From positions 124,001 through 188,000 of the forward strand of contig SAUG01000120.1 in the NCBI GenBank assembly GCA_011316305.1: DNA of 64,000 nucleotides, given 5' to 3'. The notes beneath the pieces were generated by a model. It was not told the DNA's origin, searched no databases, and worked only from the letters and a program-made list of their open reading frames with translations. Positions within the stretch are counted from its first letter, which is position 1; each line of letters starts with the position of its first letter. Below are positions 21,036 through 50,676 of this stretch, piece by piece. The position numbers were made by a program, and so were the translations under genes. The stretch is from Rusavskia elegans. Its lineage: Eukaryota; Ascomycota; Lecanoromycetes; Teloschistales; Teloschistaceae.

Positions 21036-22747
21036 TCACACTTTGATAGGTTCGTAAAAGTTAAACTTCCCTCTCGGATCATACTTCTTCTTCAAACCCC
21101 TCAATCGCTCCAGTCTCCACGGTTCATACCCATAAACCATCTCCTGCGTCTCGTCTCCAAACGCATAATTAACATACGCGTTCAATTTGCGCCCTGGCTG
21201 ACCCGAGTGCATGAGATCGCGGATCTTGCGGGCCCAGGGGATGGCGATGGAGTCGAGGGATGGGTTAGGAGCGTAGACTGCTAGAATGGAACTGCGGGGA
21301 AGGAGGGATATTAGTAGGGTTGTGGAAGGAGAAAGATGCAAGAAATTGGACGTACGCTAGGATATTGTCTTCACGATGTGGGTACGCCGTCGATGCCGCC
21401 GGCACCGCCTTTACGCCCTGGAGCGAGTACCCCTCAAAAACGACGGTGGAAAGGTTGAGAGCTGGAACAGCGACCGTCTGCTCTTTGAAGAGGTTGTAGA
21501 CGGCTCTGGTGTTCGAGACGTTGTAATTCAGCAGGCCAACAGGATACTGCATGCGGTTGTAGCCGTGGGCACAAGAGAAATCTTCATCGCCGAGGCCAGT
21601 GGCGCTGGCGAGATCTGGATAGGCGACCATGGAATCATTGTGGAAGACGGGGCCGAGGTCAAAGTAGGGCTTTGTGTATTTGGCTGCTTGCTCTTTGGTG
21701 CCGATGTAATAGATGGTAAAGATAACAACTGGCTCGGTGGTACTAATTGCCGGGTTCCAGGCGTAGAGGTAATAGTTCATCAGCTCTCTCGGCTGGTTGC
21801 CGTTATTCATCATCTTGTTGACGAGTCCAACCATCTTCTCGAGCTTGTCCTGGGTGAACACAAACTGGGCAAAGTACCAATTCTGGGCAGGGGAATCGTA
21901 TATTTTCATGGTGAAACGAGTGACGATGCCGAAATTGTGACCAGCTCCACGAAGACCCCACCAGAGGTCGGAATTGGACTTTTCGGAGACAGTCACGGTC
22001 TCGCCGCTAGCCAGGACGACGTCTGCGTCGATAATATTGTCTGCGATGAGACCATAAAAGCCCTGATATCGTCCTAGACCGCCACCAAGGCCTGCTCCCA
22101 TGATTCCTACGCATGCACAGCTCCCCGACGCAGAGGCTTTGCCTTTGCTCCATAGGTTGTCGATAAGTTCCTGGTTGTAGGAGCCGCCACCTATGCTTGC
22201 AGACTTGCCATCAGCATTGATGGTGATGCTGTTCAGTGATCGAATGTGGATCTCAATTCCATTTTTGACCGCACCAAGGGTACTGGTTGAACCGTGACCT
22301 TTATTCATCGCCAGGTACGGGATCCCGAATTTGTTCGCGAACGATACCTAGATGATTGACTGTTAGCTTCTTATGGAGTTTCTGAACCTATTAGCGATAT
22401 CGTACCGTCGTAGCCACATCCTTGGCGCTGCCCGGTTCAACCACAACTGCAATATTAGGTGCAGCATAGGTGCTCCAACGGCTGGAAGCCTCCTGGAATT
22501 GAGGAGTACCGGGGAAGTAAAGTGATGCTCCACTGGCAAGGAGAGGACCGAGCTGGCGTTGGACGTTCTGCGGAGTGGGTGCTAGAGATGTTGTGTCATT
22601 GACGGCCCGATCGAAGATATAAGGAAGAGGCGACGCCTGGCTAACAAGTATTCTCGAGGCGACAAACAAAGAAGGTAGTAAGGAATACATTGCAGAAACG
22701 AATGAACGAGATGGATGTCTTATAGATGCGGACTTCAAGGGAATCAT
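21036..22747 (-). CDS. FAD-linked oxidoreductase 1, berberine-bridge-enzyme type (bicovalent FAD motif)
   Basis: Three exons: 22747-22406, 22347-21356 and 21291-21036. Introns are 58 and 64 nt and phases agree, giving 529 aa. A hydrophobic leader follows a short N-terminus; a second in-frame ATG (22690) would give a cleaner signal peptide, so the enzyme is probably secretory or vesicular. The FAD-binding (PCMH) fold has His132 in KGHGSTSTLG, and GSCACVGIMGAGLGGG with Cys191, matching the GxCxxVGxxGxxxGGG pattern of flavoproteins that hold FAD through both His and Cys. SNSDLWWGLRGAGHNFGI and the C-terminal BBE segment (YVNYAFGD..., LRGLKKKYDPRGKFNF) are present. These enzymes oxidise alcohols, C-N or C-C bonds with O2; in fungal pathways some also catalyse or enable pericyclic ring closure. 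It marks the left edge of the polyketide cluster. Confidence 0.88.
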
Positions 22748-24148
22748 GCAGGCCAGGGTGTTCTTAAGTATGTTTACTGGGCCACTCCATCGACTATTAT
22801 CCTAACCTGCAAACCTAGACATGAACGAGAAGGAAAGGATCGTTTCTCTAAAGCTTGAAACATCCAGAAACCAATCATTGGGGCACATTCATTCTCAAGC
22901 CTCGTGGCAGTTGAGCTGAGATCGGACGAGAGTGAGTTGCAGGCCCTATCGTAAAATGCTTGTCTCTGACCCGTCTGACATTCGGGGATTCTGACGAGTC
23001 CAGAGCATCATTGAGGCCTTCTGAGCCAAATTTGCAGCGCTAGATGCAAGATCCTGTTTCCAAGGTGCTGATCTCAGCTCTTCACCGCCTTGCAGTAAAC
23101 GAGTAAGATCAATATAGTAGGCACCTTGCCGTACGCCTCGTAGTTAGTCTACAGTGCCGCCTTGTAGATGGAAGCGATGATGGCTGTGGGTACACTAGGT
23201 TGACTTGGAGGGTCTCATGGAAATACTCGTAGCGAATTCATGTGCATCGGCTATGCGAGGTACGCGAATTATGATAGGGACGATCTTGAACAGTGCATAA
23301 CCGAACATGCATGCCAATGGTCTCGAGCCGAGTGTGAGAAGCTTTAATAAACGGGTTTTGGCGGCTTACGACCGACATTTGATCAGCCAACGTTGGCCAC
23401 AATTATGCCAAGCTCGCCGTGAGTGGAGGGTAGGCAATAAAGTGCATGGTCCAGGATGTGTTGGCATAATCAGAATGATGGGAAGAATGGAGGGTCGATA
23501 TCCTGAGGCTGATTCCGACCCCAAGGATCATCTGGAAAAAGATGGACCAAAACGGAAGCAACCGCAATAGGTGGTTACACTGAGGCTGATGATCTGTGGT
23601 CAAGAGAGTAAAGCCGATGGGATTCGGCCTTGATATGCTCTCGATAGGCTCTTGTCGCGACAAAAGGCAATCACTGATGACTCAATACAGCCAGCTGAGT
23701 GAGACGTTAGTAGACTTGTCATAGCCTCAACACTTTACAGGTACCATGAGTAAACTCATCGAGAAGTGCAGTCTGTACGGAGAGGTTGTGCTTATGTAAG
23801 GTACTACCAAGGCAATTGAGATCTACTCTTATCTAGGTAAGGTCCAATAGTGGTAACTGAAGTAAGGTACCTAATGGATTCCACTTTGGCGCCTTGGCGC
23901 TGAGGCCCTGCCAAGCCATGCCAAGCCTGCGGTTACCGGTCAGGCCGATCCCTTCATCAAGAAATTTCATCTGTACATTACTGTACAGCAGTCAATAGCG
24001 CTTGCGGTCTAACCAACCGCCAGACCGTCGAGACATGCAGTTGCAGCTCGTCATAGTCTCCGTGGTCGGAGTTTGGCGTGAAAGTCGTTACCGTTGAACC
24101 TACACCAACCATCAGCAAAGTATCTTCAGTCACCAGGACCTCATCCAC
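22748..24148. other. Intergenic, no gene seen
   Basis: Short open frames only. Contains the promoter of FAD oxidase 1 at the left and the 3' end of P450-1 at the right. Confidence 0.5.
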
Positions 24149-25904
24149 TCACAGCATCAGAAGATGATCGGTCCATGCCATGTCTACCGCCGTCGTCTCA
24201 TAGATCTCCACCTCGTATCTCAAAAACACCTTGGACATCAACAGATATAATTCGCACCACGCCAGACTACGTACCCTCATGGTCAGCCGCTTGCGCTCAA
24301 GCCAAGTTTCCACCGCCGCAAGACGGAACACTTACTTCATCCCCAGACATTGTCGTGATCCCTTGTAGAAGGATGTCATGTACTTATCCAGTGTCTGAGG
24401 TTGCTCAATCAACCATCGCTCCGGCTTGAACTGCCAACTGTCCTCGCCCCAGACCGACTTGTGCCGGTTCAGGAGATATGCTGAGGTGTGGACAATGGTG
24501 CCCGGAGCAAGATCGATGCCGTCAATAGATGCACCTTCGGGAGGTACAACACGTGGCAAGCGGCCAGGAAGAGGATTGGAGCAGCGCAAGACCTCCCGGA
24601 GCACTGCCGTCAGGTATGGGAGTTGCTTCGCTTGCTCAAAAGTGATGCTTTCATCTCCCTCGGGGAACGCCTTCTGCAATTCTTCGACCATTCGCTTCAA
24701 TACCTCGGGGTGCGTGCAAATCAGGTAGGCGCCAATGATCATGGCGTTTGCTGTTGTGTCGTTCCCTGCTGTAAGTAGTGTCAACGCCTCCTCGTTCAGA
24801 TCGTACGCGTTTGGCACCACGTGTCCACGGGCAGCGTTCGGATCAAGCAGTTGCTCAAGTACTTCCGAACGGTTCTTTTGATCTGGCTTGCTTCTGTTGA
24901 TAATATAGCTGTCGATGCGTTTCCGGCATACCTTAGCAAGCCCGCATCAGCACTCGTATTCTCTACTCGTCGAACAGACTTCAACGAACTGACCTTGCCA
25001 AACTCAATGATTGGAATTGGAAACAGAGTTGAGGATACCGAATCAGGTAGGTTCAAGGATAGCCAACCAAGGTTCGGGAATGTCCGGAAGACCCAAGCTT
25101 TTTTGACTGCATCGTGAAGTGCGTCTAGATGGGGATGTTGGAACCCTGCAGAGTCCATTACGTGGAAGCTTTCTCCAAAGACCATCTCCGAAACGATGTC
25201 CATGGTCAAGCTTTTGAAGGCTGCATAGAGATTGACTGGAGAGTCTCTGCTCGCCAATCCATCAAATTTCTGGCAGAGATGCTCAACCTTGCTTTGAAGC
25301 ATGGGAGCAATAGTTTGCACTCGACTGACGGTAAAGAGTGGGTTAAGGACTTGGCGCCGTATCCGGTGAACATGTGGGTCGGTCAAGCCTATTGACGAGC
25401 TGGGAAACGAGATGCCGCGGTAGAAAGTAGGTTCTTTGGTGAATTTGGACGAGACTTTGGTAACTTCTTGGAAATAGTTGGGAGAGTTGATGTGCAGCTC
25501 ATTGACACCAATCCGTATAACAGGACCTAATTATCACGCCTCTTGTAAGCTTCTCATGTTCTTCCTTTTTGGTATAGATCTCAGCCTACCCTGTTTTTCA
25601 TGAAGTCGCTCTATCTCAAATAACAGTTGACCTGGCTTGTGAATATTCCAGTACCATTCGTACCTGTTAATACTTCAATTCATTTCCTATTCACTGTCGC
25701 ATTCTTTACTTCTTTCCGTTCTGTAACAGATACGACCTACCATTCTGTTGATGCTGCCGCAAGACGTGATCCTGGGTATTTGGCCAGTGGATGGAAATAT
25801 ATGCGGTAAACGATGCGGAGAACGTAGAAACCACACCACAGGATGACGAAGCTAAGAGGAGTTATCCATTTCGTGCCGGATACGGAAAACTGATGATTCT
25901 CCAT
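24149..25904 (-). CDS. Cytochrome P450 monooxygenase 1
   Basis: Five exons: 25904-25741, 25663-25590, 25526-24994, 24931-24336 and 24266-24149. Introns are 62-77 nt and all phases agree, giving 494 aa. An N-terminal membrane anchor (about residues 13-35) precedes the hinge HPLAKYPG. Then come EWYWNIHKPGQ...HEKQGPVIRIG, the I-helix AGNDTTA, the K-helix ExxR (LREVLR), and the haem loop FYKGSRQCLG with Cys452 as the iron ligand; the last intron falls just behind it (CLGM-NLAWCELYLL). The start is the first ATG of the frame. It is an endoplasmic-reticulum haem-thiolate enzyme that oxygenates a substrate using NADPH-P450 reductase. It is divergently arranged with FAD oxidase 2, separated by 848 bp, which suggests shared regulation. 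The substrate is presumably a polyketide intermediate, by context only. Confidence 0.92.
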
Positions 25905-26752
25905 CTTGAGAGTAGGCAATGGCGGTTGGGCTTAGAATCAAGCAATTGTACAACAATTGTCTACAGAAAGAATTTTGCCAGAATCTCAGGGCAAGATTGT
26001 TGACAGCTTTACCGAGCGTGATCCAAGGAGCGGGCGTGCATCCATTTCACAAGGTTTGGCTAATTCTGACGGCCGATGCGAACTTGACACATCCCAGATC
26101 TACCACCACGTTTTTTGTACAGGAATGAGATACAACCGTGCGTATCCGGGCTTTGTTATCCTGCAAGGCGGCCACTGCAACGCTGACGTACATCGCCAGC
26201 CAGCAAAATCGGTCGAATGGATTCACGCTCCGAACATGTCCTCAGCTAAGCTCGGATGATCCTTCCAGGCCAATACTCGGCATTAGCACCGAAATTTGTC
26301 GGGCAGAAAAGCAGTGCCTCGGCTAGCACCTGTAAGCACCAATGCGCAGGGTACCTGCAGTGGATGATCCACTGTGCCTTAGCCTTGCAGCAGGATCAGC
26401 TACCACGCGATGAGGCTCCCTCGGCTCCTCAGCGTAGCATCCTTCAGCCACCTTCGGACTATGATAGCCAAAAGGGATATCGCCTTCGAGTCCTGAGTTG
26501 TATTCCTGAAACAACAGCTCGAGATGATCATCCGTGGCGTGGTCAACGAGATGACTCGTACAGCTGCTCATCCGATCTGTGAAGGTGCAAGTGATGATCG
26601 GAGAATAGATAAAAGCCACGAGGTCCCATGGACTTTCGGCAGCATCTCGATCTTCGCCGTTCAAGCTCCTCCAGTCTTTCTGAGCCATTCGTCGTTTGTC
26701 ACCTGCTACTGCCGCTAAAATCCCCGAGCCGTTCGTTTGGTTTCCAGCCAAG
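25905..26752. promoter_or_regulatory. Divergent promoter region of P450-1 and FAD oxidase 2
   Basis: 848 bp between two oppositely directed cluster genes, with no gene of its own. No specific binding site was assigned. Confidence 0.55.
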
Positions 26753-28566
26753 ATGCAGCGTGCATTCGCCATGCAGCGACCCACTTATACTCTGCTTCTC
26801 ATCGCCACCGCTCTTTCATTCTTGGTCAACGCTGCCCCACAGGACCTGTCGTCTAGGGTTCGAGCATATCTGCAGAGCCAGGGAGTCAACGCCAGTGTCC
26901 CCAATACCGCATATGCACCCCAGACCAAAGGTGCCAATGGGGATCTGAACACCGCTCTTACCTGCGGTATCTTGAATGCATATCGTGACGCAAACCTCGT
27001 CACCCCTCAAGATGGCCAGCTCTACACAGTCCAGGCCGAACAGCACTGGTAGGTAGCAGCCTGCAGCCTAACACTTGATCCATGGCAGCGATGCTGATGC
27101 AGGCCTGATAGGTCACCTACTGCATGGGGACACCCCAACTGCATCTTCGAGCCCACCACCGTTAGGGAGGTCCAGTTCTTCGTAGGCTTATTGGGTATCA
27201 CTGGCACTACCTATGCAATCCGCAGCGGAGGCCATTCGCCATTCAAGAATTTCGCCAGCACGGACAAAGGGGTTCTCATTGCTATGCACAAGATGAAGGG
27301 TGTGGAGTATGACTCCCAATCTGAAACTGTCCGACTTGCCATGGGAAACACCTGGGGAGACGTCTATGGGCATTTGACTCAGTATAACCGCATTGTTGTC
27401 GGAGGCCGTCTGCCGCCCGTTGGCATGGCTCTTGTCACTGGAGGTATGTTTTCGCCCTCGTCATTATTCTTGACTCCATGGGTGCATAACGGCGATCCCG
27501 CTCATGCATGATCTCGTGCATGAACTGAAACTAATACATTTTCTGCAGGAGGGCTTTCTCACTCCTCCAACGAGAAAGGGTTTGCTGGTGACAATGTCGT
27601 CAATTTTGAGGTATGACCGACCCAGTTGTGACGCTTGAACAAGGCGCAATTGACACTCGGACACAGATGGTCCTCGCCGATGGCCGCCTCATCAACGCCA
27701 ACGCGACATCCAACAGCGATCTCTGGTGGGCCATGAAAGCCGGCCAAAACAACTTCGGCATCACCACCCACATCACCACCAAAGCGTACCCCATGGGCGC
27801 CGTATGGGGTGGCCTTCGGGTATGGAACGCCAGTCAACTCGACGCCGTTTCCGATGCCTTTGCCGAGTACCAACGCGAGGGCCAACTGGACACCAAATCG
27901 TCCGTCATCCCCGACCTCGTCCCCACCAACGGCACCCTCTTCATCACGCTCATTTACTTCGCTCCCGTCACCACCCGCCCCAAGGCCTTTGACGCTTTCT
28001 ACCGTATCCCGGCCGTCTCCGACGACAGCAGAGCCCACCCCAACTTCCTGGATCTCATCTCCGTCGGCCCGCCTCAGGTGGTCCCCCGCTTCAGCTACGG
28101 CTTCAGCAGCCTATATCTCGACAACTCGACCATCTACCGGGACGTAATGCGCCTATGCGCGGCGCAGGGCGAGAAAATGCGGCAAGTCAACGGCGGCACC
28201 CAAGTGCTGATCCCGCAACCCATCTCGAAGAGCATGGTCGACTACGCGGCGCAGACGGGCGGACGCCCACAGACACTGCAGCCGCGCGCCCAGCTGTGGA
28301 TGAATATGAGCTGGGGGTGGAACCTGGCCAAGGACGATGCCTATGTGTACGCGCTGATACAGGAAACGTATGAGATGGTGGATCGGTTGGCCAAGTCGCG
28401 GGGCCTGTACGATCCGTATATTTTTTTGAACGATGCGTTCCCTGCGCAGAAAGTCATGCGGAGTTATGGCCACGAGAGCTTCAGGCGGATGCAGGCGGTT
28501 AGTCGGAAGTATGATCCTACGCAGATGTTTCAGAAGCAGGTACCGGGGGGCTTCAAGTTGGACTAA
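26753..28566 (+). CDS. FAD-linked oxidoreductase 2, berberine-bridge-enzyme type (monocovalent FAD motif)
   Basis: Four exons: 26753-27048, 27112-27443, 27549-27610 and 27667-28566. Introns are 63, 105 and 56 nt and phases agree, giving 529 aa. A signal peptide follows the start (TYTLLLIATALSFLVNA). FAD is expected on His140 in RSGGHSPFKN. The second attachment site is missing: where the bicovalent enzymes have GxCxxVG this protein reads GGRLPPVGMALVTGGG, so attachment should be monocovalent. NSDLWWAMKAGQNNFGI and the C-terminal BBE tail (FLNDAFPAQKVMRSYG..., SRKYDPTQMFQKQ) are clear. It is distinct in sequence from FAD oxidase 1. Likely role: O2-dependent oxidation of a cluster intermediate, possibly in the secretory pathway. 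Berberine-bridge-type oxidases are recurrent in fungal polyketide clusters; the actual reaction is not predictable. Confidence 0.9.
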
Positions 28567-29254
28567 AAGGGGGGCGCGAGGAAAATGGCTCTTGAAGTTT
28601 GCTACGAAAGCTATTTGCATTTTCAAAGTTTTGGAGAGCGTGGCGCGGTGGGAGATGTGGTGGGTGGTTGTTATGCGATATGTTTGTTTGTTTTGAAGAT
28701 GCGCAGCATTTTTTCTTTCTTGATTCTCTGCTGCTGCTGTCAATGCACCACTTCGGTCAAAAAAGCTTGCTCTTATTTCTTTTTCTCTTCTCTTGTCCCC
28801 TTGCTGTATATACACCGTTGCCAATTCTCATTTGTCGTTATACATGGCATGGAAAAGGACTAGAAAGTACGAATATTGTCGAACATAGACAGTATAATCA
28901 GCACGCTGGTGAATATTTGGGCGGGATGCTACGTTGCGACGGACGGCTTGTTATATATATTCCGATAGTTTCATAGCTCAGACTCAGTTTGTAGATAATG
29001 TATATCACTATACTCTGATTCCTCTCTGAAACGTTCTTGTGATCTGAGATGCGTGCTGAAAGAATCTACTATGGTTGGAAGACGACACTCATCCCATCCC
29101 TAATCATTGGCAGTTGGCCCATGCGTTACAACAGCGTTGAATTTTAGCCAATCCGCTCGGAATCAGGAAATATGACACACTCCTAGTAGACATACTTGAA
29201 CCTACTGTATGTAATACACAGCAGTAAGTGCGGACTACCTACCACAACTGCTGC
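28567..29254. other. Intergenic between convergent cluster genes
   Basis: 3' flanks of FAD oxidase 2 and SDR-1. No gene seen. Confidence 0.5.
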
Positions 29255-30368
29255 TTACGATGCATACTGTCCAACTGTCTGATCCCGACTCTTCAACTCC
29301 GCAACAATCTCGCGCCAAATCCGCTTTTGCATCTTCTTCCCTTCATCGCTCTCAACCAAATGACTACGTCTGCATTAACCGCATAAGTCAGCAAGAAACC
29401 ACTTTTATTCGCGAAGCATGACAAGAAGAAAGAAGGGCAGCTCACACCACCAGTGCATCATCTTGCCAGAAGCCGCCATGGCTTTCCTTCCCCAACGCAC
29501 ACGCGCTCACAAGACTCCTGCTGCCTTGCTCTGCCGTGCGTGCTAAAAGATTCAGGTAGACGTACGCGACAATCCGCAAGATGATACCCGTAACGTTCCT
29601 GGTGAGGTTGGTTGCTGTCGCTCCTGGGTTGACGCTATTGACAATCACCCTTGACGATGTATTCTCCGTTTTTTCGCCAGCATGTTCCACCGTCGCGGCA
29701 AGTTCGTTGGCTGCATACATGAGGAAAAGCTTGGAGATGTTGTACTGAGGCTCTGGGCCGGGGAACGTTTGCTTTTTGTTGCAATATTGGAGGAGGTTTG
29801 GCGATGATACGGCTTGAGGGGACAATTCGGCGGAAGAGTAGTTGCCGGAGGAGACAAAGGCGAGATTCTTGGTTGATGCACTCGTAGCTGAAGTCGAGGA
29901 CCGTTCAATGAGGAGAGGTAGCAACAGGATCCCCAAATACGTCGTCCCTAACACATTCACCTGCAGCGTCTGCTCCCACCCTTCGTCTGAAACTTGATAC
30001 TCGAATTGCACCACCCCTGCATTCAGCAATGCGACATCCAGCCCCCCTTCTCTTCCAGTCACCTCCCGCAATTGTGTCACGAATTCGCGGATACTGGCAT
30101 AGGAACCCATATCCAGCTGCATTACTCTTACAACGCCCTTGGCGCATCCTGTTCGCGCTTCGATTTCGGATCTTGCGTCTCGGCCTTTTGATGGGGTGCG
30201 GCAGGCGAGGATGACCGTTTTGGCGCCGAGAGACACGAATTTCAAGGCGGCTTCAAAACCGAGGCCACAGTTTGCGCCGGTGACGAGGACGGTGCGGTTG
30301 GCGAAGGAGGCGGTGGGCTGGGAAGGCGGGTGGAGCTTGTCGTAGAAAAGCTGATAGAGGAAAGACAT
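29255..30368 (-). CDS. Short-chain dehydrogenase/reductase 1
   Basis: Two exons: 30368-29446 and 29369-29255. The intron is 76 nt (GTGAGC...GCTGAC...GCAG), giving 345 aa. The Rossmann NAD(P) motif TGANCGLG starts at residue 30. LLNAG and the catalytic YxxxK (YNISK) are present. The late exon adds the usual charged C-terminal helix (SHLVESDEGKKMQKRIWREI). The start is set at the ATG opening MSFLYQLFYDKL; the frame upstream is open but atypical. The protein belongs to the fungal SDR group related to retinol dehydrogenases and probably interconverts an alcohol and a ketone on a cluster intermediate. It is a paralogue of SDR-2 in this window, with the same exon layout. Confidence 0.9.
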
Positions 30369-32032
30369 TGTTGTTGTTTTAATGGCTAGATCGCTGTTGT
30401 TTCTGCTGGTTGACTGCTGGTCTGGATGGGTCGAGGTGATGGTGAAATGGAACCAACTCACCTCACAATTGGAATTCTTACAAGGGGAGCAACAACGGAC
30501 GGTCGCAAATGAATCGGCTGTCGAAGATGTTGAGAAAGAACAACTTGCATAAGGTATTGTTACCAAATTGGGCTGTAGATGGTGTAAAGTCCGAAAACGA
30601 GCGGTCTTATGGGATCAACTCCATGACCGAAGACGTCAAACATAAGCGTTTGCGAAACAGAGTACATGACTCAGCTTTCGGTCGATTCAACTTGGATCTT
30701 GACATGAGTGGAGTAGAATTAGATCTGGATGTCGTCCATCCCATACAGCCAGGCAAGTAATGAGGTACGATTTGTGTATAGCATTACCGATTGGCTGGCG
30801 TTGCCTCAAATAGGAAACAAGACGATCAGTCTATCCAAAGCGGGTATACCCTTGTGGAATACCCCTTTACGATACCGTATAGCATGCCTTGTCGTTCATG
30901 AGGGGATTGTGGTTGGACTTCCATCGAGATCAGATACCAAGACGGCAAGTGCAGCCGAAACCGAGAGTTCAGCTCTCGATATCTGTCGGACGAAGGTTGG
31001 GACAAAAGTCCGGTCCAATCCAGGACAAGGCAATCTGTTACTTGAATCGGACCTGACCAGTGTCCCCAACCCTCGGAAGGCTCGTAAAAAGGCAAATTCA
31101 CAATACACATCTTCTCCGACAACAACAGTGGTCCCATACTTCGGATCAGAAACAGTGAGTGGCCCAGTTGTCTATCGACCCTGAACCCTACGAACTTCTG
31201 GCTTATTTGTCGGACCTGAACGGAAGTTTCACCAACGACCCAAGTCACCGAGGGGACTTACTCGGCCACACCTTGTATACGCTCAAGCTTCTCCACTCCC
31301 TAAGCGCTAAGGAGATACGCTTATTTAAACAGACACAAAGGAAAGGAGGGGGACAGGGTTCGTGGACGAGATCGGGATGCGAGGGCTGCGGAAGGGACAG
31401 GAGTGGGCGAAGGCAAGAGAAAGGAGGCATGACGTGGTAATGAGGATGAGGACGACAGTAATATTGGTATGTGCATGTTCGAATTTATATCTGTTGGGTA
31501 GACATCATGATCATATGCCCGATGCACGCGAATCAGCATGACATTCAGATGCACGGAAAATGATAATCGATCGCTTGCTTCTGCACACGTCATACCCGTG
31601 TGAGAATCTCGATGGGGAATGGGGCCAAGGAACGCGGCTTACATTGTTTACCACCCTACGTCCATGAGGAAGGTGTAGAAGTCCATGTGCGGTGACTGAG
31701 CGTACTGCACGCCGTGACATCCATGGCCTGGCATTGTAAGATCCACAGAGGCTTGCACAGGATTCATCTTCAGAGATGATAGTCGGTCTAGATATTCTTT
31801 CGCTGATGCTCTTGACTCACAGAGCCATCTCAATCCAACTAATGGCGAACGATGTTAGAAAGCTCCAAGAGAAGGAGAGGAAACCATATGCTGGGAATTA
31901 AAATGTCTATATACGCCGAAAGAATGATCCATCAATGGCTTATTCTCATTTATAAAAGTCCCTTGCTGTGTTTGCTACCACTGAATAACTTTATTCGATA
32001 TGTCGGAATCGCAATATGATCCTCACCCTCGC
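30369..32032. other. 1.7-kb stretch without a confident gene
   Basis: SDR-1 promoter at the left. A minus-strand open frame 30826-31248 (140 codons) has no ATG-led domain or recognised motif. No other structure was noted. Confidence 0.4.
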
Positions 32033-34295
<2,263 letters not shown>

Positions 34296-39015: not shown

Positions 39016-40857
39016 TCAAGGAGCCCGTCGCTTGAACAATACCTTGACGTTGGGATCGGGGAAACACGCATCTGCAAATACCATGTTCTTCGGCCTTGTC
39101 AACTCGGCGCCCCTCTCAGTTGGCCCACCCTTTTCTGCGTCCTCGAATCGGACCTCGTACTGCAAAAGCAGAAGTGCAAGGATGATTTTGCTCTCGTTGC
39201 TTGCAAAGAAACGACCTGGGCACGCAAATCTTCCATGTCCAAATGTCATGCTTTCTAGTCCAGTCGTCACGAATTGGTGTGACTGTGCTGATCCTCCAGG
39301 GGCGGTCCGCATGCGATGGAAACGGAAGCCGTCAAACATCGCGGGCGACTCGTACACTGATTCCGACGATGAGATTGGTCCTGCGGCTACAGCGATGTAG
39401 CTATCCTTGGCTAGTGTGTAAGGTGGACACGACGACGGGATAGTGTACGATGTCTGGATTTTGCGATTGAATGACACTGCAAACTTTAGCAGAGCTATCC
39501 AAAGCCATGGCATGATGAAGTGCATCGCAACATACGAGCACTGGGCGGGTTCAGCCGCTGAGACTCCTTCATGAACGAATCCATCTTGGAGAGTTTGGTC
39601 AACGTGGTCTTCTTCCACTGGTGGTCCGTCTCCGTCAAGACCTCTTCTACTTCAGCACGCAGTTCAGGCCCATACTCATCCCATCGGGCAGCTAAATCAT
39701 AGATGACGTTGGTGAGATGATTGGTTGTCGTGTGAATCGCGGCAAAGCTCATTCCTAGTTGACGATCCACAATCCTCTCGGGCCTCGCGTCCGCGCCTTC
39801 TGATGCGTCTTGCAGCCACTGTATCATATCATTCGGCTTCTTGGCTTTCCAATCTGCTGTTGCTGCTGCTTGTTGGCGACGACGAAGTATCTCCGGTGTC
39901 AGAAGTTTTCTGGCGTTCCGATGATGCCGTCGTATGCGCCACATGTATGGAGAAAAGAGTGCTACAACAGGCCGGATAGCCGCCGGAACGACCTTGAGGA
40001 TCCCGCTCCCAAGAAATATGCACCTCGCAAAGTCGATGGACGTCTCCAGCCAAAGAGCGTTGCGACCTAATTCTTTGCCAACGAATATTCTTGCTGAAGT
40101 TCGACCGACTATCTGAAGAAACGTAGAGTGTACAGTGACGGGAGTCCAATCTACGCTTACGTCAGTGATATCGGAGCCTCTGGGACAGAATTCCAACCTT
40201 CACAGGCGGGCATTTCTCGAGCAAATCCATATACTGATTCATCAACAAGTGGTCCAATGTGGTTCCCAAGGTTCTGTGTCAATTGGCCTCTGGTGACATC
40301 CCACACGATATGGCCGAACAGATGTATCTGCAGGGTGGTGTAAGATCCCAGGAAGTACTATCTTCCCACTCAGTGTTTGTTTGATAGACCCTCAAGTGGC
40401 GGATGGAGCACCTACGTCTGCAACGGCATGGGACGAGCTCATTGTCGTCTCGGGAAGACTCTTCAATTCGTTCACGTATTTGGTAGGCAGAACCAAAAGA
40501 TTCTGATTCACTGTAGGGATCTGGAAGATGGTATCGGTGTACTATAAAATATTCGCCTCAGCTTACCAATAGCAGCAGGCTTCCTAAACCGACCTTGCGA
40601 TAGCCCTCGTGGATCATATCCACGCCCTGGGTGATATATCGGAGGCGGGCCCGCCAGATGGGCAGGATTATGGCCGCGCCCTTGCCCATGACAGGCAAAT
40701 TTTGACGATCATGATTGATGAAGCTCTTAGCGGATGAAGCCAAGTACCATAAGAATGGCAACGCAAACATCAATATCACTTGCTCGAGGATCGAAGTCTG
40801 AGAGAAGAGGAGCCATAATTCTCTAGCAATACTCGTGGAATTTACAAGCAGCCCCAT
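39016..40857 (-). CDS. Cytochrome P450 monooxygenase 2
   Basis: Five exons: 40857-40594, 40541-40416, 40327-40198, 40150-39536 and 39476-39016. Introns are 47-88 nt and all phases agree, giving 531 aa. An N-terminal hydrophobic anchor (about residues 25-45) is followed by EGYRK-YTDTIFQIPTVNQN and DWTPVTVHSTFLQIVGRTSARIF. The I-helix reads FAAIHTTT; the usual acidic residue before Thr is His, as in many fungal P450s of the group that includes ent-kaurene oxidases. ExxR (KESQR) and the haem loop FGHGRFACPG with Cys464 follow. It is not closely similar to P450-1 and so should perform a separate oxidation. It is transcribed away from the PKS gene across a 1.65-kb shared promoter region. Confidence 0.92.
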
Positions 40858-41605: not shown

Positions 41606-41660
41606 GGCGCTAGCCTATTACGGTTATCATACGGCCGTCGCGGTGTATCAAATCTTCCCG

Positions 41661-41693
41661 ACTCGACCTCTCGACCTCTCGACCTCTCGACCC
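41661..41693 (+). repeat. Short tandem repeat of CTCGACCT
   Basis: Three to four adjacent CTCGACCT units. Confidence 0.85.
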
Positions 41694-42511
41694 CCCGAGC
41701 TCACGACCTCCACCCTCGTCCTTCCCCAACAACCACACCTCAACTACTACCTCAGCTCCCTCCCGCATCCCCACTCCCACCTTGGATGCGCTGACCTCAT
41801 ACCGTGCCGTGCTTCGCGAATAACAGTTGCCCGCTGATGTCCCACACCAGAACTTGCCTCATATTGTGCAAGTAAGTTGATACCATGGCTTGATGACGTT
41901 GCTTACGATTCTATGAATCCCACGAGCCATGATGATTCCGTGATGTCATATTGTTTCCGCCCCCAATGCCACCTTTGTACCTGGCCAAGCCCCAGATCCT
42001 ATCGGCTTACTGCTGTTCCTCCATGCTCAACATGCAGCCTGGGTTACATCTTCCAGCTATCAGAGCTTTCAGACGCGTCTCACCGCCTCTTTTCGGAGCT
42101 AGGCTTTGCAGTAAGCTGATACACTTGGAGATTAGCGAACTCTTGACGGCTTTGGGTAATACACTGACTGCTCACTGCCTTATACCCGTAGCCAAGGCTT
42201 CCATGTAACATTGTATCGTGGTTAGATCCTCCATACTTTCAATCGATTCCAATCCGAAGTATTTACCATAAGGAAGCAGCAGGTAATGTCTCATATTTAT
42301 TTCTGAGGAACTGCCTCGATCTTTCCTTTCTCTCCATGTAGACTTGTATCATACCTGTCTAGACATCTCTTAATAACGGTGAACGAACTTCAACATTCTT
42401 GTTCATGATCTTAAAGATTCATCCATCATATCAGTCTCCCATACACCAGATTTGTTTTGATATACCCTGTCTTTCAGCACTTGTACATAGATTCTGTCTT
42501 AGATCCACACA

Positions 42512-45500
42512 ATGCCTGGTTTCCCATCCACTACCAAGGTCTTTGGAAAAGATCCCAATCCCTCAGAATGCCCGGAGCCTATTGCCATTGTCGGAATGGG
42601 TTCGTTGTTTATTCTTGTGACCCTCTCAGTCTCATCCGCAAAGAACTTATTACCACCCCCTGCATGATATGAGCTCCTAATACCCAGATACTCTTGCTGA
42701 CATTAGTCAATTAGCATGCAGATGGCCCGGAGATGCATCGAACACATCGAAACTGTGGGACCTGCTTGAACAGAAACGTTCGGGCTACACCCAATTCGAT
42801 GACAACAAACTCCATCTCGATGGTTTCTACCATCCCAATCAACATCGCCCGGGTAGCATCTATACCAAGGGTGGTTACTTCCTCAAGGAAGACCCTAAGC
42901 TGTTTGACCACAGCTTCTTTGGCATCACCCCTGTCGAAGCAATGACAATGGATCCGGCTCAGCGTAAGCTGCTTGAAGTTACCTATGAGGCCTTTGAGAA
43001 CGCCGGTGAGTCTTGGGAGAACTTCTCTGGCTCAAACACCGGCGTCTTCGTTGGCAACTTCAACTACGATCATCAGTTGGCGCAGGTCAGAGATGCTGAT
43101 CATCCACTTCCGTATGTGACGACCGGTGGCGGAATCACTATTCTCAGTAATCGTCTCAATTATGTCTTCAATCTTCACGGGCCTAGGTACGTTGCTCCTA
43201 ATGCTAGGTGAGGGGTCAACTCTGACAAACATTCAGCATGACATTGGACACTGCGTGCTCGTCCTCCATGTACGCATTGCATCTCGCCGTATCCTCGATC
43301 AGATCGGGAGAGTGCAAATCAGCTATTGTCGGAGGTAGCAATCTTGTGCTCGGGCCAGAAGCACAGCTCTTCACCACCAAGCTGGGTGCAATCTCACCCA
43401 CGTCCACGTGCCATACGTTCGACGCGTCTGCTGATGGCTACGCACGCGCTGATGGCTTCGGCGTTCTCTACGTAAAGAAGCTTTCCGACGCTCTTGCAAA
43501 TGGAGATCCCATCCGCTCTGTCATCCGAACGACCTCCATCAATGCTAATGGTCGCACTGGAGGCATTTCCCACCCGAGCCCAGAAGGTCAGGAGGCCGTC
43601 ATGAGACGCGCCTATGAGGCTGCTGGCGGTCTTGACCCTGAGCTTACCGGCTACTTCGAATGCCACGGTACCGGTACCGCCGTTGGTGACCCCTTGGAAG
43701 TATCTGCCGTGGGCAAACTCTTTTCATCTGGTCGACACCAAGAGCCCTTACTCATCGGATCTATCAAGCCAAATCTTGGACATTCGGAGTCCTCGAGTGG
43801 TCTGGCTGGAGTCATGAAAGCTGTCCTGGCAATTGAACACGGCCAGATCCCTGCCACCATCGGTCTTGTCAATCCCAACCCGAACATCGACTTTGAGGGT
43901 GCTAAGGTGAAGGTTGTGACGGAAACAACTCCATGGCCTGCGTCGAAGCCTATCAAGCGTGCTAGCATCAACTCCTTCGGTTACGGAGGCGCCAATGCCC
44001 ACGCTATCATCGAGTCCATTGACTCCTTTGTACCTGGGTACAAGGCCCATGCCAGTCGATCATCGAGCAAGTCTTCAAGCACGATCTCCAGCAGACCATC
44101 AAGTAGACTGGGCAGCAGCCCTACCAGTGCAATTTCGACACCGCCGGAGACCGCTACTGACTCGGGAGTGACGTCCGTGAAGGGATACCCTGACAAGGCA
44201 GAACGCGGTCATCACGTCGAATGTGCCATCAGCAAGCTCAACGAGCAGAACTCGGTGACGGCTGTGTCCTCGCAGGCTGGCGTGGCCATCACTTCCTGGG
44301 GTGACGACGGCGCCTTGTCTCTGCGACAGGCTTCCAACACTCGCAGACTGGTCCTTCTTCCCTTCTCTGGGCATGACGATCATTCGTTGAAAGCCAACAT
44401 TGCTGTCATTTCCGAAGTCGCCGACCAATATGATCCTGCCGACCTCGCCTATACTCTAAGCGCCAGAAGATCGAAGTTCTTCCAGCGTGCGTTTGCTATT
44501 GGCGAGCCGGAATCCCTAGCCTCGGCACTTGATGAGTCTCAGATGACCTTTGGAAAGAGTTCTGCCTCCGTACAAAAAGTTGGGTACATCTTCACCGGTC
44601 AAGGCGCACAATGGGCGGGTATGGGAGCAGAATTGTTCTCCGAGTTCGAGCTCTACAGACAGTCCATCAGATCTCTCGACAGGATCCTCAGCAAATTGCC
44701 AGATCCCCCGACCTGGAACTTGGAAGCTGCTCTACTTGAGCCAGCCGCCACCAGCAGGATTCAGGAGCCTGAATTCTCCCAGCCTCTATGCACTGCTCTC
44801 CAAATAGGTATAGTCGACCTGCTGTCATCATGGCAGATCAAGCCTGTGGCGACTGTTGGCCACTCCTCTGGAGAGATTGGCGCTGCCTATGCTGCAGGAA
44901 CCCACACGGCAGAGGAAGCGATTATCATGGCGTACTACCGGGGCAAAGTCCTTGCAACGCACACAACTCCAGGTCGCATGATGGCCGTCGGTTTAGGACC
45001 CGAGGAGGTAATTTCCTACCTTGCAAAGCCAAAAGGAAAGGTCGTCATCGCCGCTGTCAACTCACCAGGCAGTGTCACCCTCTCCGGTGACGAAGAGGCG
45101 GTCCAGGAGTTGAAGATGATTTTCGACGAGCAAAAGATTTTCGCAAGGCTTCTGCAAACCGGTGGCAAAGCATACCATTCTCATCATATGGCCCCGTTGG
45201 GCGAGACCTATGAAGGCCTCACCAAGACCGCTCTGAAGGCCTTGTCTGGTGACATCGCCAAGGGTACCCGACAGGAAGCTGCCGTATGGGTGTCTTCAGT
45301 CGATCCCTCTATACTTCAGACTACGGAGACCCTTACTCCAGCTTACTGGCGCAAGAACTTGGAGTCCGCAGTACTTTTCAGCCCTGCCGTGGAAACACTC
45401 GCCAAAGACAAGAATCTTGACCTTGACCAATTTGTTGAAATCGGTCCGCATTCAGCTCTTGCAGCGCCGCTCCGCCAGATCCGCGCTGAGTTAGACACCA

Positions 45501-48500
45501 AGGACAAGGTTAAGCTGGCACCCTGTCTCCCCAGCATCATCCGTGGCGAAGACGGATTCAAGAACTTGCTTTCACTTGCCGGCAATCTCTTCGTTCGCAA
45601 TGTCAAAGTCGATCTCGCGGCAGTGAATTCGACCGAGACCCCTGCCAAAGGAGCTGTGGGCACTCATAGCGGCAAGATCATCGCCGACCTTCCCAATTAC
45701 CAGTTCCACTATGGTACGCCAGTGTACTATGAGAGTCGTCTCAACAAAGAGTGGCGTCTTCGAAAGCATCTTCGTCATGATATCCTTGGAGCCAAACAGG
45801 CTGGTGGTGCAAAGGGAAGACCCGCATGGCGCAACATGCTCCGTCTGAAGGATGTGCCATGGTTGGACGATCACAAACTTTTGCCAGATCCAATCTTCCC
45901 AGCAGCTGGCTATCTAGCAATGGCCGTTGAAGCTATCTCGCAACATCATCATGACGAAGACGGAGCTCCACAGATCAAGGGCTTCTCCTTCCGCAGTGTT
46001 GCCATCAATTCGACTCTTGCGGTCCCTGATGACGAGTTTGGTGTCGAGACTATTCTGAACCTGCAGGCAACAACATTGACGAACTCGAAAGCTTCCGAGA
46101 AATGGCATGAGTTTAAGATCAGCTCGCTGCAGAACGACGTCTGGACCGAACATTGTCAAGGGATGATCTGCACTGAAACAGAGGCTCGTCGTCAAGATTC
46201 CGACTTCTTCGTTGATCCCAAGTCCAAGCCTGTAGATTCCGCTGCGTGGTACAAGAAATTTGCTGAAGTTGGTCTCGGCTATGGTCCTTCCTTCCAAGGC
46301 TTGAGCGACATCAAAGCACGAGACGGCCTGAACCGGACTACTGCTAATGTTGCACTTCACTCAACCAAAGACACGGTGAAATATGGTGAGTCCCCATACG
46401 CGATCCACCCTGCCACCATCGATCTTTGCCTCCAGCTTGCTTTGATGGCTTGTCATGCTGGTCAGATAGAGAACGTGAACAAGGCGTTCGTGCCTGTGGT
46501 TGCGGATGAAATGTCTCTCTGGATCCCCAGCGAAGAGGACAACGCCGCCGATTTCGGCTACGGCCAGGCATCAGGAGAACTTCGAGGCCTTCGTGGGGCA
46601 TATGCCTCAACTGAGCTGTACGGCAAGTCCGGTCAAACCCTGATGAGCATCCGCCAGCTACGCTGCGTAGCTTACGATGGTACATCTTCGGAGGATTCCG
46701 AAGCTGTTGCGCGTGCTCGCAACCCCTACCTTCGCCTGGTCTGGAAGCCAGACGTCGACTCCTTGACAAATGAGGAAGCCCGAGTGCTCTTCCCCCCTAC
46801 CACCGACATCGAGGTTTTGGCACCGACTTTCGACAAGTTCGATCGACTCTCAGCGTGTATCCTGGTACAGATATTCCAGGGCCACTCCCATCTGTTCACT
46901 CAAGACCACCCAGAGCATCTGGACAGATTCCTCAACTGGGTGCGCAGATGTTACGCTAGAGCACAGAAAGGTGATATGCCTCATGGAAAGACCGCTCTCC
47001 GTTACACACCGGCTCAACGCAAGGCTGCTATCGAGCAGCTATCCAATGAGCTGGGCACGATTGTTGAGGCGCAACTAATCAAACGCATCTATGACGCTCT
47101 ACCGCAAATCTTTTCCGGAGAGACCAGTGGCCTACACGTCGCTCTGCAAGACAGCCTCCTGACCGAGCTCTACGTCTCCGGTATTGGGATTTCCGGTGGA
47201 TACCCGCAACTTCTGAGGACGATCGACTTGATCGCCCACAAGAATCCTGCAATGAAGGTGCTTGAGATCGGTGCTGGGACAGGAGGTGCGACACGTCTCA
47301 TCATGGACACTTTGGAGGGACGGTCTCAATTCAAACGCTACGGTAGCTATTGCTTCACCGATGTGGGAACTTCGTTTTTATCCCAAGCCCAAGAGGAATT
47401 CGCAGAATGTGCAAATGTCGACTATAAGCCATTGGATATCGAGCGAGATCCATTGGAGCAGGACTTCGAGCCAGAGTACGACGTGATCGTTGCCTCCCAG
47501 GTGCTGCATGCTACCACCACGATTGCGGAGACGGTGCAGCATGCGCGAAGCCTCCTGAAGCCGGGCGGGAAGTTGGTCCTATTGGAAATTACCAATGTTC
47601 ACCTTGGCACTGGTCTTGTCTTGGGTACTTTCCCCGATTACTGGAACGGTGTGGGTGATGGCCGTGTCGACAGCCCGCTCCTTACCAAGGAGATGTGGCA
47701 ATCAGTCCTGTCTCAGAATGGATTCGGTGGCATCGATATCCTCCTTGATGATCACGAGGAATCTGTTTCGATGGCCTCGGTCATTGTCGCAACGGCTGTT
47801 GGGCCAACGACCCTCCAATCAATGATTCAAGCTCCCGAACCAAGCCTTGTATTGGCTCATGGAAACGTCCGACCATCTTTTAGCTACACGCTCGAAGAAT
47901 CTGCACTTGAGAAGGGACTCAACGTTACGCACTGCTCTATCCGTGACTCGGCAAACATCAAGGAGAATTCCAGAATCATCATCCTCGCTGATCTTCTCGA
48001 CAGCTACCTGACGACGATGAACGCAGATGACCTCGCGTCCCTGCGCCGACTCTTCAGCAAGGCTTCTTCACTTGTCTGGGTTACTGCAGGTGGTCTGATT
48101 GAGGGTGAAAAGCCCGAGAACGCATTGATCGTTGGCATGATGAGAGCCATCATTACGGAGATGCCGCAGACCAAGATCATGACCGTGGATCTGGAAGCAG
48201 GCTATGATCAGCTGAGCCAAAAAATAGCGAACACCATCTTGTCCAAGGAATTTGCTCTACAACAAGTGAACGAGCAATCCAAAGCCGTCGATGCCGAATA
48301 TACGTACAAAGATGGTCTTCTTCACAGCAGCCGACTGGTCCCAGATACCACTTTGAACCAGAGATTCTTGCAATCAGAAGGCACTTTGAAGGATACGAAG
48401 ACAGTCACCCTTCATGGTCAGGCTCCTCTGGGCATCAGCTTCGATCAGGCAGGTCTCCTAAGCTCTCTGCACTTCAAAGAGGATAAGAGCTTTTCGGCCC

Positions 48501-50676
48501 CTTTGCTTGATGATCAGATTGATGTCGAGGTTCGAGCAGTTGGCCTCAACACTAAAGTGAGTAATCGCAAATCCACTGGCCCTTGATCAAATATTAATTG
48601 AAGTCACTAACAATTCTCAATGTGTAGGACCTTGCCGTCGCCCTCGGCCGATTTGACTGGAACAGACACAGCACTGAATGCTCCGGTATCGTCAGTCGAG
48701 TTGGCAAAGACGTTACCAACGTCAAGGCCGGTGATGCAGTCTTCGGTGCTGCCCCTGGAAACTTCGGAAACTATGTGCGAGTACCTGGACGGTCAATGCA
48801 GAAGATGAACGCCTCCGACAAATTTGAGGATGTTGCATCCATGCCAGTCGTCTTCATGACTGCTATCTATGCTTTTAATCATCTGGCCCATCTCCAGAAA
48901 GGTGAGACTGTCCTCATTCAGTCTGCCACTGGAGGGTTGGGTATGGCTGCCATGCGTCTCGCGAAGCACATCGGTGCCGAAATATATGCCACCGTTGGTA
49001 CGAAAGAGAAGACGCAAATCTTGATGAAGGAATTCGGCATTGCTGAAGATCACATCTTTAATTCTCGCGAGTTGTCCACCCCCTCAAGGATCCTAGCGGC
49101 CACCAATGGCAATGGCATCGATGTCATCCTCTGCTCAGCGGCGGGAGAGGCAATGCACGAGAGCTGGAGGGCGATTGCACCCATGGGTCGTTTCATCGAA
49201 GTCGGACGTACAGATATCCTCGAACACGGCAAGCTCGGCCTTGAAGTCTTCAAACGCAACGCTACCTTCTCTTCGTTCGATCTCGGCTTGATGAACGTGC
49301 AGAAGCCGGCCTTCGTGGCAAGCCTCATGGCCGAACTCGGTGATCTCTACCGCCAGGGGGTCATCCGACCCATCGACCATATCACCAGCTTCGACATCTC
49401 CCAGCTGGAGAAAGCAATGATGCACTTCGCCAAAGGCATCCATCTCGGCAAGATCGTCGTCACCTTCCAAGATCCCCAAGCAGAACTCAAGGTCCGTCCA
49501 ATACCCAAACAAGTCACTTTCGACCCCAACGCAGCCTACCTCCTTGCCGGCTGCCTAGGCGGTCTCGGCCGAAGCATCAGCATGTGGATGGCTTCCCGCG
49601 GCGCAAAAAACCTCATCTACCTCTCTCGCTCTGGAAACGCCAACGCCGGCTCCAGCGAGATGCTCTCCGACCTGCGCACTGCCGGCGTCTCCACCCAAGT
49701 CGTCAAATGCGACATCACCTCCTCCTCGTCCGTCACATCCGCCGTCTCGCAGATCAACCTACCCATCAGAGGCGTCATCCAAGCCGCCATGGTCGTCAGC
49801 GATTCCACCTTCGAGAACCTAACCTACGACTCCTTCAAAGCCGTCACGGACCCGAAAGTCAAGGGGACCATCAACTTACATAAAGCCACCCTGAACCAAC
49901 CCCTTGAATTTTTCACCATGACATCCTCCATAGTCACCATGATCGGCACCGCCAGCCAAGGAAGCTACTGCGCCGGCAACGCCTTCCAAGACGCATTCGC
50001 CCGGCACCGCCACTCCCTCGGCCTCCCCGCCCAAGCTTTCGCACTAGGCATGATCCTCGAAGTAGGTTTCGTCTCGCACCTCCCCGAAGTCCAGAAATCA
50101 CTCATGCGCAACGGCGTCTACGGAACCGGCGAAAAAGAATTCCTCAAGATCTTCGAAGCTTCTTTCTCACAACAATCTACAAACGCCAACCCTGACAGTA
50201 ACAGATGGGGAATTGAAGATAAGGGCGCTTCAAGCCATCTCCTGACAGGGCTGGAACCAATCAAACTAGATGAGCTGTACAAAAACGGGCACGCGGCTGA
50301 CTTCACCTGGCACACCGACGCGCGCTTCTCCCTCCTTCTACAATCCATCCGCGATCTTTCTGCCTCCACTTTCAAATCCTCATCCAGCAGCGACTCCATA
50401 ACCGAAACGCTCAAATCCGCCTCCGGGCCGGATTTTCGCCGCATCGTGACAGGGGCTATACTAGAGCGCTTGGGGAAGTTATTGTTCACCCCGAGCGAAG
50501 AAATGGATCCCAGCAAAGCGGTGAGCGAGTATGGGATGGATAGCATGATCGCGGCGGAATTGAGGAATTGGTTCGTCAAGAGTTTTGGTACGGATGTGAC
50601 GTTTTTGGAATTGTTGAATCCGAGTACAAAGATCTCGGATTTGGTGGAGAAGGTTGCAGGTGTGTGGAAGATGTGA
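42512..50676 (+). CDS. Highly reducing polyketide synthase (KS-AT-DH-CMeT-ER-KR-ACP)
   Basis: Four exons: 42512-42599, 42715-43186, 43237-48556 and 48628-50676. Introns are 115, 50 and 71 nt and phases agree, giving 2642 aa. KS (about residues 24-450) has Cys194 in DTACSSS, His330 in ECHGTGT and His369 in NLGHSE. AT has GQGAQWAGMG and Ser729 in GHSSG. DH has His1065 in DHKLLPDPIFP and Asp1248 in HPATIDLCLQ. The C-methyltransferase has an intact SAM motif LEIGAGTGGATR (about 1528). ER has QSATGGLGMAAM (about 2058-2069), KR has AGCLGGLGRS and the S..Y..AGN set (Tyr2407), and the ACP attaches its arm at Ser2599 in YGMDSM. There is no thioesterase, condensation or reductase domain at the end, so the chain leaves by pyrone formation or a separate enzyme. 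An active ER and CMeT predict reduced, methyl-branched segments. It is the core enzyme of the surrounding cluster. Confidence 0.96.

What the first reader, a model, noticed from the sequence alone, without database searches (positions are those of the whole stretch)
21036..50676. Nine-gene highly reducing polyketide cluster with two flavo-oxidases, two P450s, two SDRs, an O-methyltransferase and a transporter
Nine consecutive biosynthetic genes with three divergent promoter pairs and no unrelated gene between them. The set (HR-PKS with CMeT and ER, O-MeT, P450, berberine-bridge-type oxidase) overlaps the solanapyrone pathway, where such an oxidase also forms the Diels-Alder product. It adds a second oxidase, a second P450 and two SDRs, so a more oxidised, possibly new cyclised polyketide is plausible. 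The product itself is not readable from sequence.
Basis: partly seen in the sequence, partly recalled or inferred. Interest (0 to 1): 0.8.

Follow-up and report, generated by a model that had tools for sequence, protein, structure and literature searches.

The report
Lichen-fungus polyketide gene cluster
Nine neighbouring genes in a lichen-forming fungus appear to be switched on together and to make a modified polyketide of unknown structure; parts of the same gene group are linked in other lichen fungi too, which hints at an old, kept function.

Summary
In detail: nine intact biosynthetic genes at 21036-50676 (two FAD oxidases, two P450s, two SDRs, MFS, OMT, and an HR-PKS with cMT and ER but no thioesterase), three divergent pairs, no unrelated gene between. 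The genome is a lichen fungus near Xanthoria/Rusavskia/Calogaya. New evidence: (1) the PKS sits in a 22-row clade (65-98% identity) whose eight named members are all lichen fungi; the next full-length listed PKS is 49%. (2) In 9 of 13 named lichen genomes with at least two of four searched genes (PKS, BBE1, SDR1, SDR2), these are linked by contig or consecutive tag; four are undecided. Five genes were not searched; no close BBE2 relative was listed. (3) A CCG-N8-CGG repeat occurs in 5 of 6 promoter regions as first tested (0 of 200 control sets), and in the sixth when its whole intergenic region is read, so co-regulation including the outer genes is likely. The solanapyrone analogy is type-level only; Diels-Alder chemistry is untested. 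The OMT's top PDB match is a pericyclase, but its SAM motif is intact. Best guess: an O-methylated, oxidised alpha-pyrone, perhaps finished outside the cell. A new member of a known kind.

The parts
21036..22690 (-). BBE1: FAD-linked (BBE-like) oxidase, 510 aa, 3 exons; His113 and Cys172 at the positions of a bicovalent flavin; hydrophobic signal-like N-terminus
24051..25904 (-). P450a: cytochrome P450, 506 aa, 6 exons
26753..28566 (+). BBE2: FAD-linked (BBE-like) oxidase, 529 aa, 4 exons; His140 kept, no Cys at the second linkage position; signal-like N-terminus
29183..30368 (-). SDR1: short-chain dehydrogenase/reductase, 348 aa; TGANCGLG, YNISK
32033..34124 (-). MFS transporter (MFS_1/TRI12-like); model lacks one internal exon
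35110..36137 (+). SDR2: short-chain dehydrogenase/reductase, 323 aa; TGANVGIG, YNTSK
36917..38315 (-). O-methyltransferase (Methyltransf_2), 426 aa; intact SAM motif DVGGGSGH and HNW motif
39016..40857 (-). P450b: cytochrome P450, about 533 aa, 5 exons
42512..50676 (+). HR-PKS, 2642 aa, KS-AT-DH-cMT-ER-KR-ACP, active-site motifs present, no thioesterase
23614..23627 (-). CCG-N8-CGG site, 924 bp upstream of BBE1 (outside the 800 bp first tested)
   Evidence: not significant on its own: 20 of 150 control tiles as good
26289..26302 (+). CCG-N8-CGG site in the P450a/BBE2 divergent promoter (a second, weaker one at 26136)
30591..30604 (+). CCG-N8-CGG site upstream of SDR1
34660..34673 (-). CCG-N8-CGG site in the MFS/SDR2 divergent promoter (another at 34495)
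   Evidence: in the leave-one-out test a different site, 34752, scored best here
38575..38588 (+). CCG-N8-CGG site upstream of OMT
42083..42096 (-). CCG-N8-CGG site in the P450b/PKS divergent promoter
   Evidence: leave-one-out alone not significant: 24 of 150

Best explanation
This is probably a working, co-regulated highly reducing polyketide cluster of a lichen-forming Teloschistaceae fungus, inherited mainly by descent from an ancestor shared with other lichen fungi. Shown: nine intact genes, linkage of several of them in relatives, a shared promoter motif. Inferred: the PKS builds a C-methylated, largely reduced chain; with no thioesterase or other release enzyme in the cluster, the chain leaves by closing an alpha-pyrone (or similar lactone), whose enol is O-methylated by the OMT; the P450s place hydroxyls; the two FAD oxidases, which carry signal-like N-termini, oxidise them to carbonyls in the secretory pathway or outside the cell; the SDRs adjust or reverse the oxidation state in the cytosol; the MFS exports the product. 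A Zn2Cys6-type regulator probably reads the CCG-N8-CGG sites.
For: Pfam classes and intact motifs. PKS clade of 22 rows, eight named members all lichen fungi, Xylographa outermost as descent predicts. Linkage in 9 of 13 named lichen genomes that hold at least two of the four searched genes; in Flavoplaca cf. flavocitrina the PKS-SDR1 tag distance (6064-6059) equals the window's spacing. Motif: 5 of 6 regions against a control mean of 0.29, 0 of 200 control sets reaching 5; among CCG-Nk-CGG with k 0-20 no other gap gives more than 3 sites there; 4 of the genome's 224 CCGAAAN5CGG sites lie within 15.8 kb here. Pyrone release and OMT role by analogy with prosolanapyrone synthase (passages of PMC11686517).
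Against: Pyrone release, order of steps and secretion are not shown; signal-like N-termini rest on hydropathy alone. Only 4 of 9 genes were effectively traced in relatives; no close BBE2 relative was among the 120 hits listed of 531. In 4 of the 13 genomes the genes are on different, short contigs. Tag spacing differs from the window in Fulgogasparrea, Letrouitia, Gallowayella and Xylographa. Two of six motif regions fail leave-one-out on their own, and six further CCG-N8-CGG sites lie inside cluster genes. No expression data.
Confidence: 0.6

Rival explanations
1. A solanapyrone-like pathway: the PKS makes a pyrone with a diene side chain; OMT, a P450 and one BBE oxidase act like Sol2, Sol6 and Sol5, and the oxidase triggers a [4+2] cyclisation to a decalin. 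The further P450, oxidase and SDRs decorate it.
For: Four gene types shared with the sol cluster (passages). Two listed PKS relatives (47% over 100%, 42% over 80%) bear an annotator's name prosolanapyrone synthase.
Against: No sol sequence was compared. No regulator gene sits among the nine, while sol4 is in the sol cluster. BBE-like oxidases do several other reactions (passages of PMC11375781).
Confidence: 0.15
2. An activation/protection shuttle as in A26771B biosynthesis: secreted oxidase(s) turn an exported alcohol into the active ketone, and cytosolic SDR(s) reduce any that re-enters. Two oxidases, two SDRs and one exporter would serve this.
For: BerkD (secreted oxidase) and BerkC (cytoplasmic SDR) work so (passage of PMC9854587); BeklD, given as 96% identical to BerkD, is called bicovalent (passage of PMC11375781), as BBE1 appears to be. 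Signal-like N-termini on both oxidases.
Against: Secretion is not shown; no acyltransferase like BerkF among the nine; the A26771B product is a macrolide; SDRs are common in ordinary tailoring.
Confidence: 0.2
3. The OMT-like protein is not a methyltransferase but a pericyclase (LepI/HpiI type) that forms a ring, an SDR preparing its substrate.
For: Top PDB hit is HpiI (122.9 bits) and third 7bqj (105.2 bits), with a matching N-terminal region. That these are pericyclases is recalled.
Against: SAM motif DVGGGSGH and HNW are intact and align with 8pha (HNW) and GedA (HDW); HpiI reads DLSGITGH and HKE there. Known pericyclases of this type act on PKS-NRPS products (recalled), and no NRPS is among the nine.
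Confidence: 0.08
4. Two neighbouring clusters: an inner PKS-P450b-OMT-SDR2 group and an outer oxidase group that only happens to adjoin.
For: In Fulgogasparrea only two tags lie between PKS and BBE1; in Letrouitia PKS and SDR2 tags are consecutive. The motif near BBE1 is not significant on its own.
Against: PKS, BBE1, SDR1 and SDR2 lie within ten tags in Xylographa; the motif is in the P450a/BBE2 and SDR1 promoters too.
Confidence: 0.1

Closest known systems
Solanapyrone cluster (sol1-sol6)
   Same: HR-PKS without a release domain, O-methyltransferase, P450, BBE-like oxidase (passages of PMC11686517)
   Different: Here a second oxidase, a second P450, two SDRs and an MFS; no regulator among the nine (sol4 there), no check of sol3; orthology untested
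A26771B/berkeleylactone pathway (BerkC/BerkD)
   Same: BBE-like oxidase plus SDR with an exported polyketide (passages of PMC9854587 and PMC11375781)
   Different: Macrolide pathway with acyltransferase BerkF; no evidence here for secretion or for an active ketone
O-methyltransferase-like pericyclases (LepI, HpiI; function recalled)
   Same: Among the nearest solved relatives of the OMT by sequence
   Different: SAM-binding and HNW motifs intact here; no NRPS among the nine
Squalene synthase clusters conserved in lichen fungi (PMC11457338, abstract and passages)
   Same: A biosynthetic cluster kept across lichen-forming fungi
   Different: Terpene/sterol genes, 80 and 94.6% of the species studied there; the breadth of this HR-PKS cluster was not measured

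Membership tests
Fungal highly reducing type I PKS | KS-AT-DH-(cMT)-ER-KR-ACP with intact active sites | tested here: met
   (motifs recalled)
Fungal highly reducing type I PKS | No C-terminal thioesterase or NRPS | tested here: met
   protein ends soon after the ACP
Solanapyrone-type cluster | HR-PKS, OMT, P450 and BBE-like oxidase together | tested here: met
   against the gene list
Solanapyrone-type cluster | Regulator gene within the cluster | tested here: not met
   none among the nine; nearest is a Fungal_trans regulator at 16471-13693 with no CCG-N8-CGG site upstream
Solanapyrone-type cluster | Genes orthologous to sol1, 2, 5, 6 | not testable with these tools
   no sol sequences at hand
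Solanapyrone-type cluster | Oxidase-triggered [4+2] cyclisation | not testable with these tools
   needs product analysis
BBE-like FAD oxidases | FAD_binding_4 domain and covalent-flavin His | tested here: met
   BBE1 His113, BBE2 His140
BBE-like FAD oxidases, bicovalent subset | Second linkage Cys | tested here: met
   BBE1 Cys172; Cys in 36 of 42 aligned rows (BBE1, BBE2 and the first 40 of 120 hits), 3 gaps, 2 Ala, 1 Leu; BBE2 lacks it
OMT-like pericyclases | Degenerate SAM motif as in HpiI | tested here: not met
A26771B-type oxidation/reduction shuttle | Secreted oxidase | tested here: inconclusive
   signal-like N-termini by hydropathy only
A26771B-type oxidation/reduction shuttle | Cytosolic SDR reversing the oxidation | not testable with these tools
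   SDRs present; activity unknown
A26771B-type oxidation/reduction shuttle | Acyltransferase like BerkF | tested here: not met
   none among the nine

The most novel reading that the evidence does not exclude
An HR-PKS pathway present in the common ancestor of the Teloschistales and Xylographa lineages and kept as a gene group since, which would make it one of the most widely conserved polyketide pathways of lichen-forming fungi, working by a shuttle in which exported alcohols are oxidised outside the hypha by two secreted flavin oxidases and reduced inside by two SDRs.
Probability: 0.2. Interest if true: 0.7.

Novelty: new member of a known kind. Interest (0 to 1): 0.45.

Why it matters
Lichen polyketides linked to genes so far come mostly from non-reducing PKSs (PMC9964704, passages), and a 2024 paper says that widely distributed, conserved biosynthetic pathways were not known in lichen fungi before its squalene synthase clusters (PMC11457338, abstract and passages). 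An HR-PKS gene group with linkage in Teloschistaceae, Letrouitia and Xylographa, and a shared promoter motif, gives a concrete and testable candidate for a long-kept polyketide function in the symbiosis.

Tried and rejected
Pericyclase reading of the OMT: not the main reading because the SAM motif is intact. Recent duplication: the best-scoring other matches of BBE2, OMT and SDR1 in the genome are 33, 31 and 37% identical. Exact shared 7- to 10-mers in the promoters: no more than in controls. The Fungal_trans regulator at 13.7-16.5 kb as the cluster's regulator: possible; its Zn2Cys6-like N-terminus is my reading (Pfam listed only Fungal_trans), no CCG-N8-CGG site lies upstream, only a weak half-like match at 16815, and relatives were not searched. 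NCBIfam scan of the OMT: nothing near the cut-offs. MIBiG could not be searched. No structure prediction was run.

Literature: seven searches touched this question; I saw listings and, of papers opened, passages and one section. Nothing in what I saw describes this cluster. PMC9146135 sorts the reducing PKSs of 23 lichen genomes into groups and proposes two new ones; whether this PKS falls in one of them could not be told from what I read.

BBE2 in relatives: the two-sequence search listed no close BBE2 relative among 120 of 531 hits, although BBE2 itself scores 1022 bits against that profile and the same kind of search returned both SDR types (61 nearer SDR1 and 59 nearer SDR2). Yet Variospora has two tags between SDR1 and BBE1, room for P450a and BBE2. 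Left open.
Full report
WHAT IS THERE. The window is bases 124001-188000 of contig C26 (192,039 bp) of a 44.2-Mb fungal genome in 217 contigs. A gene finder written here found nine spliced genes without internal stops between 21036 and 50676, refined by reading the sequence. PKS active-site motifs of all domains are present (the motifs are recalled knowledge). Three pairs are divergent: P450a/BBE2, MFS/SDR2, P450b/PKS.

WHOSE IT IS. In the PKS search 7447 of 7986 scored candidates matched and the best 120 were listed. P0001-P0020 and P0025 form with the window's PKS a clade of 22 rows (local support 100; FastTree, KS-AT part, 71 of the 122 rows at hand used). The eight named members are Calogaya, Flavoplaca, Fulgogasparrea, Seirophora, Teloschistes, Gyalolechia, Letrouitia and Xylographa soralifera (92, 91, 82, 81, 80, 79, 75 and 65% identity), all lichen fungi; thirteen rows are unnamed contigs. 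The next PKS aligned over its full length is 49% identical; a few others show higher identity over part only (67% over 17%, 52% over 52%). BBE1, SDR1 and SDR2 are closest to Xanthoria steineri (94%), Xanthoria sp. 2 (96%) and Rusavskia elegans (97%), so the window comes from a Teloschistaceae fungus near these genera. In the PKS, BBE1 and SDR2 trees Xylographa falls outside the Teloschistales rows, as descent predicts (the relation of these lineages is recalled); in the SDR1 tree it falls in a separate group, and SDR1 branches are longer (SDR and BBE1 trees are rooted at the midpoint for drawing). Lecanorales are suggested only by SDR1 of Alectoria and Mycoblastus (about 55%); no PKS named from them was listed.

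IS IT ONE CLUSTER IN RELATIVES? I take locus tags to run along contigs, and equal contig lengths in the hit tables to mark one contig. Of 13 named lichen genomes with at least two of the four traced genes, nine show linkage: Flavoplaca cf. flavocitrina (PKS 6064, SDR1 6059), Fulgogasparrea (PKS 2041, BBE1 2044), Xylographa (PKS 305, BBE1 310, SDR1 311, SDR2 314), Variospora (SDR1 897, BBE1 900), Flavoplaca limonia (SDR2 4094, SDR1 4096), Squamulea squamosa (7385, 7387), Teloschistes peruensis (6543, 6545), Gallowayella (SDR1 963, SDR2 969) and Letrouitia sp. 1 (PKS 93, SDR2 94; consecutive tags, but the listed contig lengths differ). In four (Seirophora, Calogaya, Wetmoreana brouardii, Teloschistes flavicans LQ352) the genes are on different contigs of 8.6-32 kb, which does not decide the matter. 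Five unnamed contigs (20,930; 34,482; 32,970; 216,610; 37,359 bp) hold two of the genes each, judged by equal contig length. Tag spacing agrees with the window in five of the nine (both Flavoplaca, Variospora, Squamulea, T. peruensis), not in Fulgogasparrea, Letrouitia, Gallowayella or Xylographa. P450a, P450b, OMT and MFS were not searched; no close BBE2 relative was listed. Outside lichens a related PKS and a BBE1-like gene have consecutive tags in Pseudomassariella (42% and 48%) and lie two tags apart in Parahypoxylon (47% and 45%), but those oxidases fall outside the lichen BBE1 clade.

IS IT ONE REGULATORY UNIT? Of 95 gapped CGG/CCG patterns tested on six promoter regions, CCG-N8-CGG occurred in 5 of 6; in 200 control sets of equal tiles the mean was 0.29 and none reached 5. 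Controls came from the rest of the window, coding and non-coding together. Of 16 CCG-N8-CGG sites in the window, seven lie in those regions, one (23614) in the BBE1 intergenic region but beyond the 800 bp first tested, six inside cluster genes and two right of the cluster; the left 23.6 kb has none, and the five flanking loci (44 kb) hold five. Other gaps from 0 to 20 give 0-3 sites in the regions. Six of the eight intergenic sites read CCGAA(A/T). In a leave-one-region-out test the best site was rare in control tiles for four regions (0-3 of 150; for MFS/SDR2 it was another site, 34752), but not for BBE1 (20 of 150) or P450b/PKS (24 of 150). Genome-wide CCGAAAN5CGG occurs 224 times (the reversed control pattern 329 times), of which four within 15.8 kb here, all in cluster promoters, where about 0.08 would be expected (100 of the 224 places are listed; the motif was derived from these sites). 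CCGAAWN5CGG occurs 729 times, self-complementary sites counted twice. Such a pattern suits a Zn2Cys6 regulator (recalled) and ties most outer promoters to that of the PKS; the tie of BBE1 is the weakest.

HOW IT PROBABLY WORKS. The PKS lacks a release domain and no hydrolase or acyltransferase is among the nine; prosolanapyrone synthase likewise releases its chain by pyrone formation, followed by O-methylation by Sol2, hydroxylation by the P450 and oxidation by Sol5 (PMC11686517, passages). I infer a C-methylated, O-methylated pyrone that is hydroxylated and then oxidised. BBE1 has both flavin-linkage residues (His113, Cys172), BBE2 only the His; a bicovalent flavin has a higher redox potential and allows a more open site (PMC11375781, passages). 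Both have hydrophobic N-termini, so oxidation outside the cytosol is plausible, and with two SDRs and an exporter this recalls the BerkD/BerkC shuttle (PMC9854587, passage). None of these steps is shown here. The OMT's top PDB match is HpiI (122.9 bits; GedA 103.3), a pericyclase by recall, but its SAM and HNW motifs are intact, so methylation is the likelier role.

WHAT IT IS NOT SHOWN TO BE. It is not filed as a solanapyrone cluster: no regulator is among the nine genes, and orthology and Diels-Alder chemistry could not be tested. It is a new member of a known kind, fungal HR-PKS clusters, with a set of two BBE oxidases and two SDRs. Its interest lies in its recurrence in lichen fungi rather than in the gene list.

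Noticed in passing
G000:C26 113.6-114.4 kb KS; about -16810 to -9606 in window coordinates (L011/L012): A second reducing PKS on the minus strand about 10 kb left of the window; its model has ten introns and at most 40% identity to the 70 PKS rows it was aligned with. One CCG-N8-CGG site lies about 1 kb upstream (L012:1397), not among the 25 best PWM sites.
   Followed up: partly
16471-13693 (-): Fungal_trans regulator with a Zn2Cys6-like N-terminus by eye, 4.6 kb from BBE1; possible cluster regulator, no CCG-N8-CGG site upstream.
   Followed up: partly
50.7-64 kb: Gene-poor stretch right of the PKS; at 52-54 and 60-62 kb TpA/ApT is 1.06 and 1.11, leaning towards repeat-induced mutation.
   Followed up: partly
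288-3002 (-) and 4939-6739 (+): AAA ATPase with DUF7025, and a protein with a weak NPHP3_N match.
   Followed up: no
SDR1 29183-30368 and its relatives: SDR1 diverges faster than its neighbours: 67% to Flavoplaca cf. flavocitrina where the PKS is 91% (SDR2 is 90% to F. limonia); Xanthoria calcicola has a 73% relative in another branch, possibly a paralogue.
   Followed up: partly
L013 (contig end): The contig ends 4 kb right of the window in a run of C, so the right flank beyond that cannot be read; an EMP24/GP25L gene lies at 65469-66211 in window coordinates.
   Followed up: no
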